A DNA stretch of 29,454 bases from a virus, in the IMG/VR virus record IMGVR_UViG_3300032083_001699, positions 1-29,454 of that record; one strand, written 5' to 3'. Positions 11,799 to 16,817 of this stretch are shown here, in pieces. The notes under the pieces are model-generated. The model saw nothing but the letters and a program-made list of their open reading frames with translations. It was not told the DNA's origin and made no database searches. How positions within the stretch are numbered: the stretch's first letter is position 1; the number at the start of each line of letters is the position of its first letter. A program made the position numbers and the translations under genes.

Positions 11799-13079
11799 AT
11801 GGCTGCAAAGAAAATAATCTTACCGATTTCGCGTATCAAAAAGCATCAAATGAAAGCAGGTGTTTTCTATAAAGTAGATATGCGCCCAATTATCAACAAC
11901 CCGGCATATGGTAAATTCAAAACATTCGATGATGCACTGGTTGCAATGCAAAAATTAAATGAAAGTTTTAACGGCGAAAAATTGATTGCTGAGGATGTTA
12001 AAGAAGGCAAGATTTTTACAGTGTCAGATGCCATCGATGATTATTTAGCAAATCAAAAACTGCTAATGACAACCGCATATCATAACGAGCAGACATTTAA
12101 TTTAAAGTTAATGAAGGCAATAACCTATGATGAAATGCAAATACAAAAACACCAGATTGAAAATCTAGGCGCAAAGTCTCACCGCGCAAAATTGCGAACT
12201 TGCCTTCAGCTAGAAATACAAAACGAAGGTAAAAGCAATGACACTATGCAAAAGCGCCGCAAGCATTGGCAGAAGTTTTTTAGCTATGCAGCAAATGTTG
12301 GTTGGGTAGATGCAAACCCAATTACAGATTTAAAACTTCCGCAGAAAAATGCAGTCGATAGTCGAGCGCGAAAAGTGCAAAAAGATTTCATTGAATGGCT
12401 TCAGACCGATGGCATAAGTGCATATAGGTCAGCACATATAAAAGCCTGTGAAATTAAATTATGTGGAAGGGGTAGAAACGAACTTCTTTACAAGCCTGAT
12501 TTTGTAGAGTTGATGATGTTGTTAGCAATGACAACAGGCATCCGTCAAGGTGAGCTAAGAGGACTTAGGCGCTGTGACTATTCAGCTAACAGGCAAATTA
12601 TTACAACGCGCAAAGCAGTGAAACATTCCACACAAAATCTTGGTCAAATAAAAACAAACCAAGGCCAAGACCGACAAATAGAAGTGCCAGCCGAAGTTTG
12701 TGCTATGCTTGATAAACATCTTACAACAAGCAAATTTCAAGAACCGACTGATTTGATTTTTTCGTCATCGGCTGGAACGCCATTGCGGAAAAATGATTTC
12801 AGTAATATCTGCAAGCCCATCCGAAAGGCTTGTCCATTTGTTAATGAAGACACCGGAGAAATATTGCATTTTGTCTGGGGTGATTTGCGCCATGCTTTTG
12901 CTAGTTTGATGATTGAACTTCTCGGAGCAAATTGGGCGGCGATTGCTGAATCTATGGGTCATACAAACGCTAATTTTACTCGTAAGCAATATGGACATAT
13001 TATTGTTGATGAAGAAAAGAGCCGTATTAAACGCGAGGCCGCTAGTGCCATACTTATTAAAAAAGAGAGGCGCTTATAG
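11799..13079 (+). CDS. int: Tyrosine-recombinase phage integrase
   Basis: 426 aa; AGGGAG at 11786-11791 lies 7 nt before the ATG. An N-terminal arm-binding region is followed by a SAM-like core-binding domain (about residues 80-190, DTMQKRRKHWQKFFSYAANV) and the catalytic domain. Catalytic residues visible: R249 in TTGIRQGELRGLRR, K285 in IKTNQG, R364 in WGDLRHAFAS, H388 in SMGHTN and nucleophile Y398 in RKQYGHI. The usual His three residues before the second Arg is Gly361. It directs integration at tRNA-Glu through the adjacent attP. Its 3' end overlaps a convergent small gene and that operon's terminator. Confidence 0.93.
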   Translation: MAAKKIILPISRIKKHQMKAGVFYKVDMRPIINNPAYGKFKTFDDALVAMQKLNESFNGEKLIAEDVKEGKIFTVSDAIDDYLANQKLLMTTAYHNEQTFNLKLMKAITYDEMQIQKHQIENLGAKSHRAKLRTCLQLEIQNEGKSNDTMQKRRKHWQKFFSYAANVGWVDANPITDLKLPQKNAVDSRARKVQKDFIEWLQTDGISAYRSAHIKACEIKLCGRGRNELLYKPDFVELMMLLAMTTGIRQGELRGLRRCDYSANRQIITTRKAVKHSTQNLGQIKTNQGQDRQIEVPAEVCAMLDKHLTTSKFQEPTDLIFSSSAGTPLRKNDFSNICKPIRKACPFVNEDTGEILHFVWGDLRHAFASLMIELLGANWAAIAESMGHTNANFTRKQYGHIIVDEEKSRIKREAASAILIKKERRL

Positions 13080-13088
13080 CGCCCCTCT
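13059..13088 (-). terminator. Intrinsic terminator of the leftward recombination operon
   Basis: On the - strand a GC-rich hairpin (AGAGGGGCGCT / AGCGCCTCT around ATA, with a two-base bulge) is followed by six U residues (A-run 13059-13064 on +). It overlaps the last codons of int and the 3' end of the 45-aa gene, ending leftward transcription without separate spacer DNA. Confidence 0.75.
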
Positions 13089-13211
13089 AATCCTCTCTAA
13101 AAGTTTCTGCCAAAATGATTTCGGAGCCTTCCGATTATCCCAGTAAGCTCTCAGCCGTTTTGAGTGCGCGGCCTTTTGCTCATCTGTCCAAGGCTTTCTT
13201 GGTTTTCGCAT
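13074..13211 (-). CDS. 45-aa basic Trp-rich protein
   Basis: MRKPRKPWTDEQKAAHSKRL then RAYWDNRKAPKSFWQKLLER and IRGAL. AGGAG about 8 nt before the ATG is the best ribosome binding site in the neighbourhood. It overlaps the 3' end of the excisionase-like gene by 61 bp and of int by 6 bp. The W-T-EQ...R-AYW--RK pattern is common in tiny phage proteins of unknown function. Confidence 0.6.
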   Translation of the reverse strand: MRKPRKPWTDEQKAAHSKRLRAYWDNRKAPKSFWQKLLERIRGAL

Positions 13212-13396
13212 TTTGTTTCTCCTAATTTATCAATTTCAGATTTCGGAATGTAGTAGCGTGATCCATCCATCACGGCATTAAACACGCCTGACTTTATCCA
13301 GCGTCTAACCCTCTTGCGGCTGGCCTCATTATAGCCTTCAGCAAACAGAGCATCACAAGCCTCTTTCAGCGTGTATAGAAGCTGATTAGAACTCAT
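13151..13396 (-). CDS. Excisionase/MerR-like HTH protein
   Basis: 81 aa from the ATG at 13396; a GTG at 13408 would add four residues. YTLKEACDALFAEGYNEAS, then RVRRWIKSGVFNAVMDGSRY and YIPKSEIDKL, is a winged-helix excisionase-family DNA-binding domain (recognition helix, then wing with R-Y-IPKSEID). Close to int and in the operon expected to be on during induction, it is the best candidate for the recombination directionality factor. Overlaps the gene before by 11 bp. Confidence 0.65.
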   Translation of the reverse strand: MSSNQLLYTLKEACDALFAEGYNEASRKRVRRWIKSGVFNAVMDGSRYYIPKSEIDKLGETKCENQESLGQMSKRPRTQNG

Positions 13397-13727
13397 ATGG
13401 CGGCTCACTTATTGGCGCTGGCGCAATGGGTGCAGGTGCAGCAGGCGCGGCAGGTGGCGGGCTAACAGAGGCTGGCCCAGCGCCATCATTGATAAACAAC
13501 GTAGAGCTACAGACCTTATGATATGTATCACCGATTTTTACCTGCAATTCCAGCGAGGGCTGCTTTTTCCAATCGTCTTTATTGGTGTTGTAATAATTAT
13601 CAAGCTGTGCTTTTAGCTCTGGGTCTTGCACATTAAACCAAAGCGAAATGCTTAAATTTTCGTCAACGCGGATTTCACGTTGTAGCCGTTCAGCTTTTAC
13701 AGTTGCCTTATATTCAGGTCTTGCCAT
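13386..13727 (-). CDS. Unknown protein of the recombination operon, SSB-like candidate
   Basis: 113 aa. The first 80 residues are a compact charged domain with several strands (NLSISLWFNV, SLELQVKIGD, YHKVCSSTLFIND). A Pro/Ala-rich linker (about residues 84-105) and a short tip SEPPYEF follow. A globular domain plus Pro-rich linker plus acidic-aromatic tip is the architecture of ssDNA-binding proteins (E. coli SSB ends DDDIPF). It directly follows the ERF annealase. No OB-fold motif can be confirmed by eye, so the role stays tentative. GAGGA precedes the ATG. Confidence 0.5.
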   Translation of the reverse strand: MARPEYKATVKAERLQREIRVDENLSISLWFNVQDPELKAQLDNYYNTNKDDWKKQPSLELQVKIGDTYHKVCSSTLFINDGAGPASVSPPPAAPAAPAPIAPAPISEPPYEF

Positions 13728-14313
13728 TTCTTATATCCTCTTCGTGTTGCTTCCAAATCGCGTAAAATCGGTTGTATTGTGCAGGCTGTTCTTTATGCAT
13801 CTGCATAAGCTCCGGGTTTATTTCACTGACCCAGGCATTGAGGCTGACCAGTGATTTGAACGTCCTGCATTTTGCCTCTAACTCTGACGTATCGACTGGC
13901 TTTGTGTTGCTATTGTCCTGCAACAAGCCATTGATTTGTCCGTCATCATCATCATCAAAATCTATTTCTTGGATGCCAGCGGCAAGCCCAAGCGCTGCCA
14001 TGAGTGCATAACGCCGGGCATAGCTAATAGCTGACCCAAGTTTCTGGTTGTTGGTCATATCATCTACAGCAATCGGATACCGCCCAACCTTCTCATCGCC
14101 GCTTACATGCATGATATAGGTCTTCAGGTGCATCCCTATGCCCTCTTCATAATCAACCAACTGGCTGAATGAGAGGCCGTGCTGGGCCGCTTCTTTCACT
14201 TTGGTCATTACTGACCCAACGCTTGCATACTGGCTTCTGTTGCCCGTCTTATCTAATTCTAGCCCGGTCTGCGAGGCTTGGAATGTAGCAAGAGCTTTTG
14301 CTAATTCATTCAT
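13714..14313 (-). CDS. erf: ERF-family single-strand annealing protein
   Basis: 199 aa from the ATG at 14313, which has AAGG 5 nt upstream; a GTG at 14319 is the alternative. YASVGSVMTKVKEAAQHGLS, THIMH-like TYIMHVSGDEK, and NQKLGSAISYARRYALMAAL followed by an Asp-rich DFDDDDDG are the ERF superfamily signature. It anneals complementary single strands made by the exonuclease of the same operon, for recombination or genome circularisation. The C-terminal 60 residues are variable. Confidence 0.85.
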   Translation of the reverse strand: MNELAKALATFQASQTGLELDKTGNRSQYASVGSVMTKVKEAAQHGLSFSQLVDYEEGIGMHLKTYIMHVSGDEKVGRYPIAVDDMTNNQKLGSAISYARRYALMAALGLAAGIQEIDFDDDDDGQINGLLQDNSNTKPVDTSELEAKCRTFKSLVSLNAWVSEINPELMQMHKEQPAQYNRFYAIWKQHEEDIRNGKT

Positions 14314-14647
14314 TGTCACCTTCCACTTTTTTCGTGTTAAATATGCCCTTGTGGGCTGGGTTATTCTTCATCCAAAGCCTTGCGTAATAGGGCTTGTGAT
14401 GGTCGTTTAATTTGACAGCTTCCCCGTCCGGTCGCGCATCAATGATTGCAACTGATGTTTCCCACCGGATGCGTTCCATAATCATTTGGCTACCAATGCG
14501 CTCATAGCCTCGCTCTATGGCTTGCTTTGTGAAGCGATCCCAAAGCTGATAGACGATTGGGTTTTGCTTATGAAACGCCATAAACTTAGCTTCACGCTCG
14601 TTGCGAGGCACCTCTAGCGCATCAAATAGGTTGCGTTGCTGTTCCAT
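14306..14647 (-). CDS. Conserved phage protein of unknown function
   Basis: 113 aa, TAATG overlap with the gene before. The pattern FMAFHKQNPIVYQLWDRFTK, RGYERIGSQMIMERIRWETS and NDHHKPYYARLWMKNNP is familiar from phage recombination and early regions, but no function is assigned. Rich in aromatic and basic residues. Likely co-translated with ERF. Confidence 0.6.
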   Translation of the reverse strand: MEQQRNLFDALEVPRNEREAKFMAFHKQNPIVYQLWDRFTKQAIERGYERIGSQMIMERIRWETSVAIIDARPDGEAVKLNDHHKPYYARLWMKNNPAHKGIFNTKKVEGDNE

Positions 14648-14826
14648 TAGAAATGCCCCGGCACAGCGGCATAGAGCAGGCTAATCATAGCCCAGAGCCA
14701 AAGGGTCGTGAACAATGCGCCACAGCTATATTTCAGCACCTGCATTGCAGTCATGTATCTGCGCCGACTGCGATGAATATCGTTGACCTGATGGAAATGT
14801 AAGTTGATATATTTGTCTTTTATCAT
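14647..14826 (-). CDS. Small single-TM protein
   Basis: 59 aa from the ATG that overlaps the exonuclease stop (ATGA). A basic N-terminal part (HRSRRRYMTAMQVLKYSCG) precedes one membrane segment (ALFTTLWLWAMISLLYAAV) and a short end. A membrane protein inside a recombination operon is unusual; it may act in exclusion or membrane anchoring, with no evidence for either. Confidence 0.55.
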   Translation of the reverse strand: MIKDKYINLHFHQVNDIHRSRRRYMTAMQVLKYSCGALFTTLWLWAMISLLYAAVPGHF

Positions 14827-15740
14827 TTGAACCCCCATAGCGTTTTGGCTTCATCAACAAGGCTGGGTTTCATATCCCAAGCCCACATATGTTTGAAATC
14901 TGGCTCAACGAGGCGAAGCATATCCTCAACTGAATCAGTGCTTTTAAGTAGATTTTCGCGGATGGCGCATTTTGCAATGATGTGCTTCAGCGCTGACTGC
15001 AAACCTTGCTCAGTCAGCCTCTCGCAGTTATCAGCGTTGAAAATGCGGTAATCTTTTGCTGTTGCGTAAACGATTGTTTGCAATAGCCCGGTGCCAGCCC
15101 AATAGCCTGCAACTTGGCAGATGTGGCTCCAATCAGGCTGTGAGGGCAGGGCAGCGCTACGCTTGCCGGACTTGGTGTTAGCCGCAACACCCGACCATTT
15201 TGTTTTAAGCTCGATGCGGCGTGAGAAGTCAGGAAACCCAGAGTAAGGCAAATCAAGCCCGTCTAATTGGGTGAGAATCTCTGTCTCGCCCGAAATTTGA
15301 TTGATGCCTGCAATGCTGTGAGCCTCGCGGATGCCATCGACAGCGTTCTTAATAACAAGGTCGTATTCATCACGATTGACAGACAGCTTGCGCTCATCCT
15401 TTCCATCATCCCAGCCTCTTGGCTCATATTCATCAAACAGGGCCATGCCATAGCGCACAACGGCATCAAAGCTATGACCGTCAAGCAAGTGCTGATTAAC
15501 GCAATCCTGCACAATACGGCCTGCAAGCATGTTTGCATTATCATTGTCTAAAAATTGAATTGTTTGCTTGGCAATAATTTTATCGCCATCAGCCTCGCCC
15601 TTTGAAACTTTCCAAGCCGCATTTTTGCGGGGGCGCAAAACACACTTATCAAAGAGCGTGGCGCATAAAGGGCGCGAAGGGTTGCTGTGATGCAAATAAT
15701 GTTTTTTGGTTGCCCAAGAAATATCTTTTGGCGCTAGCAT
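14823..15740 (-). CDS. PD-(D/E)XK exonuclease of the recombination module
   Basis: 305 aa. The catalytic core shows GFPDF with D171, IELKTK with E177 and K179, and QVAGY (Q209...Y213), the RecB/YqaJ-like PD-(D/E)XK arrangement. With ERF two genes downstream it forms an exonuclease-annealase pair comparable to Red or RecET. The ATG at 15740 has no separate leader: the U-run of a hairpin abuts it, and the hairpin's GAGAGG, 7 nt upstream, is the only ribosome binding site. Confidence 0.8.
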   Translation of the reverse strand: MLAPKDISWATKKHYLHHSNPSRPLCATLFDKCVLRPRKNAAWKVSKGEADGDKIIAKQTIQFLDNDNANMLAGRIVQDCVNQHLLDGHSFDAVVRYGMALFDEYEPRGWDDGKDERKLSVNRDEYDLVIKNAVDGIREAHSIAGINQISGETEILTQLDGLDLPYSGFPDFSRRIELKTKWSGVAANTKSGKRSAALPSQPDWSHICQVAGYWAGTGLLQTIVYATAKDYRIFNADNCERLTEQGLQSALKHIIAKCAIRENLLKSTDSVEDMLRLVEPDFKHMWAWDMKPSLVDEAKTLWGFK

Positions 15741-15772
15741 AAAAAAACCTCTCAGTAAGAATCACTGAGAGG
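15741..15772 (-). terminator. Terminator hairpin whose 3' arm is the exonuclease RBS
   Basis: On the - strand CCTCTCAGT (15772-15764), loop GATTCTT, ACTGAGAGG (15756-15748) makes a perfect 9-bp stem followed by seven U (15747-15741) and then the ATG. It would terminate transcripts coming from the repressor gene, and in any read-through RNA it would bury the GAGAGG ribosome binding site. Confidence 0.75.
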
Positions 15773-15801
15773 AGATTAAGAAGGTAGACTTTAAATGTCA
15801 A
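15773..15801 (-). promoter_or_regulatory. Putative exonuclease-operon promoter with operator-like half site
   Basis: - strand TTGACA (15801-15796), 17-bp spacer, TAATCT (15778-15773; T, A and final T conserved). Transcription would start near 15766, inside the 5' arm of the hairpin. AGACTTTAAATGTCA at 15786-15800 matches the phage operator at 11 of 15 positions and overlaps the -35. Confidence 0.55.
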
Positions 15802-15812
15802 GCGGGTATGTT

Positions 15813-16514
15813 TTAAAAGTCTCCAATACCATCAACAAAAGCGACATCACGCAGGTCTGGACGAAGTATAACTGCCAAGATAGGCGTAGCCCATTCGAGT
15901 TCTAAGCCTCTATAGATGCTATTACCATCGTAAAAAACTTGTTTCGCAAGTGTATAAAGACCGCCGGGTTCTGGAAATAAAACGCCTTGAGTAAAGGTTT
16001 TCATCACACCGCCTATAACTTGAGGCTCTTTTAACTTTACCCAAGAGGAATTTTGATAACATTCTTTATCAACATATTTTCCCTCAATCGGCGCTAATCT
16101 AATTGTCTCTAAGGCTTGATGAAAATTTGAATAGGGCCCAATAAAATCTGCATCAGTTGTCCATGTTACAGCGCCAGTGCCAGCTTGGTGGAATGAACTT
16201 AAATAAGCATAACCTAGTTTATTTGTTTCTGACGATTCTTCAAAAGTATTTATGCTAACTATGTTTTTGTTTGCATCATTTGTTAAATGAGTCTTACCTA
16301 CAATTTTCACAGGGTCTGATTTGTATGATATCTGGTGCGGTATACAACCAAGAATTTCTGCATACTCTTCTGCATCTCGCAGGGTGAAAGGCACCTTTTC
16401 ATGAATATGCCGTGACAGGGTTTCAGGCGTCACGCCTTTGCGCTCGGCAACTACTTTCTTTTGTAAGCCAGAAGCGCGGATCATTTTTTCGAGATTATTG
16501 TTCATAATAACCAT
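15813..16514 (-). CDS. CI-like repressor with XRE-type HTH
   Basis: 233 aa from the ATG at 16514, which has AGGGT 8 nt upstream; a GTG at 16541 would place the operators inside the gene, and an ATG at 16505 is also possible. The N-terminus (LEKMIRASGLQKKVVAERKG, then VTPETLSRHIHEKVPFTLRD) is a helix-turn-helix domain. The C-terminal 160 residues are a distinct domain (WTTDADFIGPYSNFHQALE ... VLFPEPGGLYTLAKQVFYDG) with no recognisable S24 LexA/CI peptidase signature. It presumably maintains lysogeny by binding the repeated operators. Confidence 0.75.
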   Translation of the reverse strand: MVIMNNNLEKMIRASGLQKKVVAERKGVTPETLSRHIHEKVPFTLRDAEEYAEILGCIPHQISYKSDPVKIVGKTHLTNDANKNIVSINTFEESSETNKLGYAYLSSFHQAGTGAVTWTTDADFIGPYSNFHQALETIRLAPIEGKYVDKECYQNSSWVKLKEPQVIGGVMKTFTQGVLFPEPGGLYTLAKQVFYDGNSIYRGLELEWATPILAVILRPDLRDVAFVDGIGDF

Positions 16515-16515
16515 G

Positions 16516-16540
16516 TTACATACCCTGTCATTTTGTGTCA
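16516..16540. promoter_or_regulatory. Operator pair beside the repressor start
   Basis: TTACATACCCTGTCA (16516-16530) and TGTCATTTTGTGTCA (16526-16540) share the middle half site, so three half sites are spaced by 5 bp. They match the operator consensus at 11 and 12 of 15 positions, and lie immediately upstream of the repressor ATG. Confidence 0.5.
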
Positions 16541-16550
16541 CTTAAAAATA

Positions 16551-16579
16551 TAAGTAAGTGGGTTGCCATAAGATGTCAA
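16551..16579 (-). promoter_or_regulatory. Putative repressor promoter with operator
   Basis: - strand TTGACA (16579-16574), 17 bp, TACTTA (weak -10). The operator TGCCATAAGATGTCA (16564-16578, 14/15 to consensus) covers the -35. The 20-bp block from 16567 recurs almost exactly at 20174, showing the site is conserved for DNA binding and not coding. Confidence 0.55.
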
Positions 16580-16598
16580 CTATATTAATTAAAATAGC

Positions 16599-16817
16599 AT
16601 GACACTTGATGACTTTAGAAAAAATCAGGGCTGGTCGTACAGCAAACTAGCTGACGCTGTAGGAGCGAGCCACGCAACAATAGCCCGGCGCTGGTGTCTA
16701 CCCGCTGGGAATGTGCAGCGCAAAATTCCTCATCCAACATATATGAGCCGCATTGTCGCTCTAACTGACGGGCTGGTTCAGCCCAACAGCTTTTATGATG
16801 TGTCGCCGGATGACTGA
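16599..16817 (+). CDS. Cro-like HTH protein
   Basis: 72 aa, divergent from the repressor. WSYSKLADAVGASHATIARR is a helix-turn-helix of the XRE/Cro type. There is no Shine-Dalgarno before the ATG (AATTAAAATAGC), so the transcript may be leaderless or poorly translated. First gene of the rightward early operon, where Cro sits in lambdoid phages. Its end overlaps the VRR-NUC gene. Confidence 0.7.
   Translation: MTLDDFRKNQGWSYSKLADAVGASHATIARRWCLPAGNVQRKIPHPTYMSRIVALTDGLVQPNSFYDVSPDD

What the first reader, a model, noticed from the sequence alone, without database searches (positions are those of the whole stretch)
15741..15801. Promoter nested in a terminator that hides a ribosome binding site
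A perfect 9-bp terminator hairpin before the exonuclease ATG carries the only RBS in its 3' arm. The promoter just upstream would start transcription inside the 5' arm, so its RNA lacks the hairpin and exposes the RBS, while read-through from the repressor gene is both terminated and untranslatable. The layout would insulate recombination genes from lysogenic transcription.
Basis: partly seen in the sequence, partly recalled or inferred. Interest (0 to 1): 0.75.

Follow-up and report, generated by a model that had tools for sequence, protein, structure and literature searches.

The report
Read-through-proof promoter for phage recombination genes
In a family of uncultured, mostly marine-type temperate phages, the DNA-recombination genes sit behind the repressor gene and start with one RNA hairpin that looks able to stop stray repressor transcripts and to hide the ribosome site on any that slip through, while the genes' own promoter starts inside the hairpin and so escapes both locks.

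Summary
On the minus strand TTGACA (15801-15796), a 17-nt spacer and TAATCT (15778-15773) abut an 11-pair hairpin (15772-15748) whose 3' arm holds the only Shine-Dalgarno sequence (GAGAGG), followed by T7 and the ATG (15740). It is not chance: about 80 homologous phage loci keep the layout while the stem sequence changes in compensation (swap test 0 of 20,000), and only 3 of 168 other gene starts look alike. The stem starts 22-29 nt after the -35 box in 46 of 48 sequences, so a sigma70-type start (about +36) falls deep in the 5' arm. Freeing the SD costs about 12 kcal/mol in read-through RNA and about 3 in the promoter's own RNA. Natural variants support insulation: the hairpin is present in 58 of 64 phages with a co-directional repressor upstream and in 0 of 9 without it. 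In L046/L050 promoter, operator and 3' arm survive and only the 5' arm has decayed. Several lineages keep the RBS-hiding stem without a T-tract. The logic is known from T4 gene e, I-TevI and IS10/IS200; new here are the single-hairpin double lock and its place in a lysogeny module. TSS, termination and translation effects are inferred, not measured.

The parts
15796..15801 (-). -35 element TTGACA, also the left half of a dyad
   Evidence: Sequence; TTGAC nearly invariant in 48 aligned relatives
15785..15801 (-). Dyad operator-like site TTGACATTTAAAGTCTA over the -35 and spacer (family form TTGACA-N5-TGTCAA)
   Evidence: Family alignments; similar sites in the cro-repressor intergenic region
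15773..15778 (-). -10 element TAATCT at 17-nt spacing
   Evidence: Sequence; T at this position in 47 of 48 relatives, next base A in 32 of 48
15764..15766 (-). Predicted transcription start, inside the 5' arm (35-37 nt after the first base of the -35)
   Evidence: Inference from sigma70 geometry; positions 37-38 are purine-rich in relatives
15762..15772 (-). 5' arm of hairpin CCTCTCAGTGA
   Evidence: compensatory change across relatives
15748..15758 (-). 3' arm of hairpin TTACTGAGAGG, containing the Shine-Dalgarno GAGAGG (15753-15748)
   Evidence: SD paired in the ensemble
15741..15747 (-). T7 tract: terminator tail, also SD-to-ATG spacer
14823..15740 (-). First gene of the recombination operon, 305 aa, probable nuclease
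   Evidence: No Pfam or PHROG hit in the window protein; 25-34% identity to pelagiphage proteins, several annotated putative nuclease; ERF gene downstream
13714..14319 (-). ERF-type ssDNA annealing protein, same operon
   Evidence: PF04404 E 5.4e-16, phrog_2324
15813..16541 (-). Co-directional phage repressor gene (HTH plus C-terminal domain); source of the read-through
   Evidence: PF13443, phrog_3; model pLDDT 80, best Foldseek hit a lambda-186 hybrid repressor with E 2e-7 but TM 0.3, so mainly the HTH is reliable
16599..16817 (+). Divergent Cro-like HTH gene
   Evidence: Conserved next to the repressor, or directly next to the nuclease gene when the repressor is absent

Best explanation
The element is a promoter built so that only its own transcripts express the recombination operon. 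(1) The repressor gene points into the operon; its transcript meets the hairpin plus T7 and is terminated (inferred). (2) Any transcript that reads through still carries the whole hairpin, which buries the only Shine-Dalgarno sequence, so the nuclease is not translated (occlusion computed, effect inferred). (3) The operon's own promoter has its -10 at the edge of the stem and should start about 15764-15766, inside the 5' arm; that RNA lacks most of the arm and exposes the SD (geometry shown, start site inferred). (4) A dyad over the -35, resembling sites in the cro-repressor control region, probably lets the phage regulator keep this promoter off in the lysogen (inferred). The lock would keep a nuclease and an annealing protein silent while the repressor is transcribed.
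For: The layout is conserved in about 80 loci. Swapping arms between phages destroys pairing: own -12.7 kcal/mol against permuted -6.9, sd 0.7, 0 of 20,000. Sense-strand RNA is more stable than antisense in 44 of 48, with 98 of 641 pairs G-U. First paired base is 22-29 nt after the -35 start in 46 of 48 sequences (the other two, L071 and L073, have a doubtful -35 choice). SD opening costs 12.2 kcal/mol on average in read-through RNA against 3.2-3.4 in promoter-start RNA; in the window 12 against 1-4 depending on coding length. Hairpin in 58 of 64 repressor-bearing and 0 of 9 repressor-less distinct proteins, the latter needing 5-6 changes on the tree; Fisher p = 9e-5 on distinct upstream sequences. 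L046/L050 keep promoter, operator, SD, T6 and ATG but the 5' arm has decayed. T-tract-free relatives keep the occluding stem. The mechanism is experimentally established for T4 e and I-TevI (PMC3014915, PMC2988022).
Against: No transcript end, termination or translation was measured. The -10 is weak by E. coli standards. Six repressor-bearing relatives (L077, L081, L083, L085, L087, L089) lack a clear occluding stem. The phylogenetically independent contrast is small: 5 pairs, 4 agree, 0 oppose, p about 0.125. In the window's own short RNA the SD can pair with early codons. Own operator similarity (12.9 of 17) only modestly exceeds cross-phage similarity (12.0) and shuffled sequence (10.4), so which protein binds is open.
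Confidence: 0.8

Rival explanations
1. It is only the repressor's intrinsic terminator; the overlap with the RBS and promoter is a by-product of genome compaction.
For: Good terminator shape with T7; the repressor stop is only 72 nt before the ATG; the hairpin is absent where the repressor is absent.
Against: Relatives L080/L082/L086/L094, L076 and L098/L100-L102 keep a strong stem over the SD without a run of T. A terminator placed downstream of the promoter would stop the operon's own mRNA unless transcription starts inside the stem, and the stem position relative to the -35 is tightly kept.
Confidence: 0.12
2. It is a regulated attenuator or switch: the operon mRNA starts upstream, carries the whole hairpin, and a protein or an antiterminator opens it during induction.
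For: Terminator-type stems before the first gene of an operon are common attenuators (PMC2965389).
Against: The conserved -35/-10 pair gives a start inside the stem. No conserved alternative pairing or protein site was seen; loop sequence and length vary. No Rfam family matches.
Confidence: 0.06
3. The inverted repeat is a DNA operator bound by a regulator, not an RNA structure.
For: It is a palindrome at the promoter start region; a second, conserved dyad lies over the -35.
Against: Arm sequence differs between clades while pairing is kept. About 15% of pairs are G-U and the antisense strand folds much worse. One arm always contains the SD.
Confidence: 0.02

Closest known systems
Phage T4 gene e, soc, 49 and I-TevI late-promoter/hairpin arrangement
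   Same: Long upstream transcripts form a hairpin over the RBS; a promoter next to it makes RNA lacking the 5' part of the hairpin, which is translated (PMC3014915, PMC2988022).
   Different: T4 separates early from late expression with a phage sigma factor. Here the hairpin also carries a terminator tail, the promoter is sigma70-like with a dyad operator, and the source to be silenced is a repressor gene.
IS10 (Tn10) and IS200 protection from external promoters
   Same: A mobile element blocks read-through transcription and translation of its recombination enzyme by RNA structure (cited in PMC2965389; detail from own knowledge of Davis 1985 and Beuzon 1999, which were not read here).
   Different: To my knowledge IS200 uses separate structures for termination and RBS occlusion. 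Here one hairpin does both, in a temperate phage control region.
Conventional terminator between neighbouring phage transcription units
   Same: Insulates neighbouring transcription units.
   Different: Here it is placed downstream of the next promoter and fused with the next gene's RBS.

Membership tests
Start-site-dependent RBS occlusion (T4 e / I-TevI type) | Hairpin in long transcripts covers the SD | tested here: met
   SD paired probability about 1 in read-through RNA
Start-site-dependent RBS occlusion (T4 e / I-TevI type) | A promoter whose transcript lacks the 5' arm | tested here: inconclusive
   Promoter geometry fits in 46 of 48 relatives; start site not mapped
Start-site-dependent RBS occlusion (T4 e / I-TevI type) | Long transcripts poorly translated, short ones well | not testable with these tools
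   Needs reporters
Intrinsic (Rho-independent) terminator | Stable stem followed directly by a T-run | tested here: met
   11-pair stem, T7
Intrinsic (Rho-independent) terminator | Terminates transcription | not testable with these tools
   Needs in vitro transcription or 3'-end mapping
Sigma70-type promoter | TTGACA, about 17 nt, TATAAT-like -10 | tested here: inconclusive
   -35 perfect, spacing 17, -10 only 3 of 6 but its first T conserved in 47 of 48
Structured RNA kept by covariation | Compensatory change maintains pairing | tested here: met
   Swap test

The most novel reading that the evidence does not exclude
A single hairpin acts as terminator, ribosome-site lock and start-site boundary at once, and its retention depends on having a repressor gene pointing into the operon. 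It would be a dedicated, evolvable insulator between lysogenic transcription and recombination genes across a large uncultured phage group, decaying by 5'-arm mutation when the repressor is lost.
Probability: 0.6. Interest if true: 0.65.

Novelty: new variant of a known kind. Interest (0 to 1): 0.55.

Why it matters
It shows how a compact temperate phage can put a nuclease operon directly behind its repressor gene without leak. The natural losses give a rare comparative test of what such a hairpin is for. The design (start inside the 5' arm of a terminator that also holds the RBS) is a compact insulated promoter that could be tested at once in laboratory E. coli reporters.

Tried and rejected
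No similar DNA in the phage collection and no host or prophage genome found in two genome scans, so the host is unknown. Rfam and tRNA scans of the window were empty. AlphaFold of the nuclease failed (pLDDT 39) and was not used. Pfam, PHROG and PDB sequence searches do not name the nuclease; weak hits, including a Cas-associated family at E 0.002, are not relied on. A MAFFT alignment of the stems was not in structural register across clades, so an alignment-free arm-swap test was used for covariation. The idea that the hairpin-less, repressor-bearing L089 uses a separate upstream terminator was looked at and not shown. The idea that repressor-less relatives have simply become non-integrating is not supported: several still carry an integrase.

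Full report
What is there. On the minus strand, between the repressor gene (stop near 15813) and a 305-codon gene (ATG 15740), lie TTGACA, 17 nt, TAATCT, then directly CCTCTCAGTGA-TTC-TTACTGAGAGG, T7 and ATG. The 3' arm contains the gene's only Shine-Dalgarno sequence. The terminator scan finds the hairpin; the promoter scan misses the promoter because the -10 matches only 3 of 6. No other start codon in the window combines a -35 match, an occluding stem and an SD.

The neighbourhood. The window is a 29-kb virus record with integrase, terminase, portal and structural genes. The repressor (16541 to 15813) has a Cro/CI-type HTH; its model resembles CI-like repressors at the HTH level. A divergent Cro-like gene starts at 16599. 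Downstream of the hairpin, in the repressor's direction, lie the 305-aa protein, two small genes, an ERF annealing protein, and two more small genes, one of which looks excisionase-like by eye. The 305-aa protein has no family hit. Its only named relatives are cultured pelagiphage proteins at 25-34% identity, some annotated as putative nucleases and some next to single-strand annealing proteins. 'Nuclease' is therefore probable, not proven.

Conservation. Scans of viral contigs gave about 80 homologous loci, protein identity roughly 45 to 99%. In nearly all, the same string of features precedes the gene. Aligned on the -35, TTGAC is almost invariant, the other dyad half follows at 13-17, the first T of the -10 is at 24 in 47 of 48, and purines dominate at 37-38 where a start is expected. 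The first paired base lies 22-29 nt after the -35 start in 46 of 48 sequences. Thus the start should fall roughly 7-13 nt into the stem.

Is the stem under selection? I took 5' and 3' halves of distinct upstream sequences and compared own pairing with pairing across phages. For 16 dissimilar representatives the own mean was -12.7 kcal/mol, against -6.9 (sd 0.7) for permuted partners, with 0 of 20,000 permutations as good. The sense strand folds better than the antisense in 44 of 48, and 98 of 641 pairs are G-U, which points to RNA of this strand rather than a DNA palindrome. At other gene starts of the same contigs only 3 of 168 have such an occluding stem.

Effect on the ribosome site. Opening the SD costs 12.2 kcal/mol on average in read-through RNA and 3.2-3.4 in RNA starting at +35 to +37 from the -35. 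For the window the numbers are 12 and 1-4, the latter depending on how much coding sequence is included, because the SD can pair with early codons.

A natural experiment. A profile search located repressor and Cro-like genes in every locus. Among 73 distinct nuclease proteins with known upstream context, 64 have the repressor directly upstream in the same direction. Of these, 58 have a strong occluding hairpin and 6 do not. The other 9 lack the repressor, with the Cro-like gene divergent upstream of the nuclease gene, and none has the hairpin. No relative of the repressor was found anywhere in those nine contigs, some of which are short fragments. The repressor-less state needs 5-6 changes on the tree. 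Of 5 independent pairs, the hairpin goes the same way in 4 and never the other way; with so few pairs this is p about 0.125. Ignoring kinship, Fisher's test on distinct upstream sequences gives 9e-5. The clearest case is L046/L050 beside L035/L040: the -35, dyad, SD, T6 and ATG are kept, while the 5' arm has changed at about ten positions and pairing is gone. In L084/L088/L090 the whole stem segment has been replaced.

Termination or occlusion? Clades around L080/L082/L094, L076 and L098/L100-L102 keep a stem over the SD but have no T-run, or only a poor one. Occlusion is therefore at least as general as termination; the window's clade has both.

The operator. The dyad over the -35 (family form TTGACA-N5-TGTCAA) recurs in the cro-repressor intergenic region of most loci. 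A phage's own two sites match at 12.9 of 17 positions on average, against 12.0 across phages and 10.4 for shuffled sequence. This suggests a shared regulator but does not identify it.

Exceptions. L077, L081, L083, L085, L087 and L089 have the repressor but no clear occluding stem. They lie in an AT-rich part of the tree. They show that the lock is not indispensable everywhere.

Comparison. T4 gene e and I-TevI have the same start-site-dependent RBS lock, demonstrated by experiment (PMC3014915, PMC2988022). IS elements carry 5' terminators against external transcription (PMC2965389), and Tn10 and IS200 are cited there for protection at transcription and translation; those two papers were not held and not read. 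The present element combines the two logics in one hairpin and places it in a lysogeny module. I found no description of this arrangement in the literature searched, but that library is limited to open-licence papers.

Verdict. What is shown: sequence, conservation, compensatory pairing, geometry, association with the repressor. What is inferred: start site, termination, translational block, and regulation by the repressor or Cro.

Noticed in passing
15785-15801 and about 16541-16599: A dyad TTGACA-N5-TGTCAA lies over the -35 of the nuclease promoter and again between the cro-like and repressor genes in most relatives; likely a shared operator.
   Followed up: partly
L078, L079, L088 (contigs of): Contigs without the repressor still carry a tyrosine integrase, so losing this repressor does not mean losing the integration gene.
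   Followed up: partly
13064-13088 (-): Strong terminator-like hairpin at the end of the leftward recombination operon, overlapping the 3' end of the convergent integrase gene.
   Followed up: no
13151-13408 (-): Small protein with a helix-turn-helix look at the end of the recombination operon, excisionase-like by eye; no family search was run on it.
   Followed up: no
L077, L081, L087 upstream of the nuclease gene: A different AT-rich hairpin over the -10 that leaves the SD free, in place of the occluding stem; role unknown.
   Followed up: partly
L076 contig, repressor gene: The repressor match in this record is reported with one in-frame TAG; not examined.
   Followed up: no
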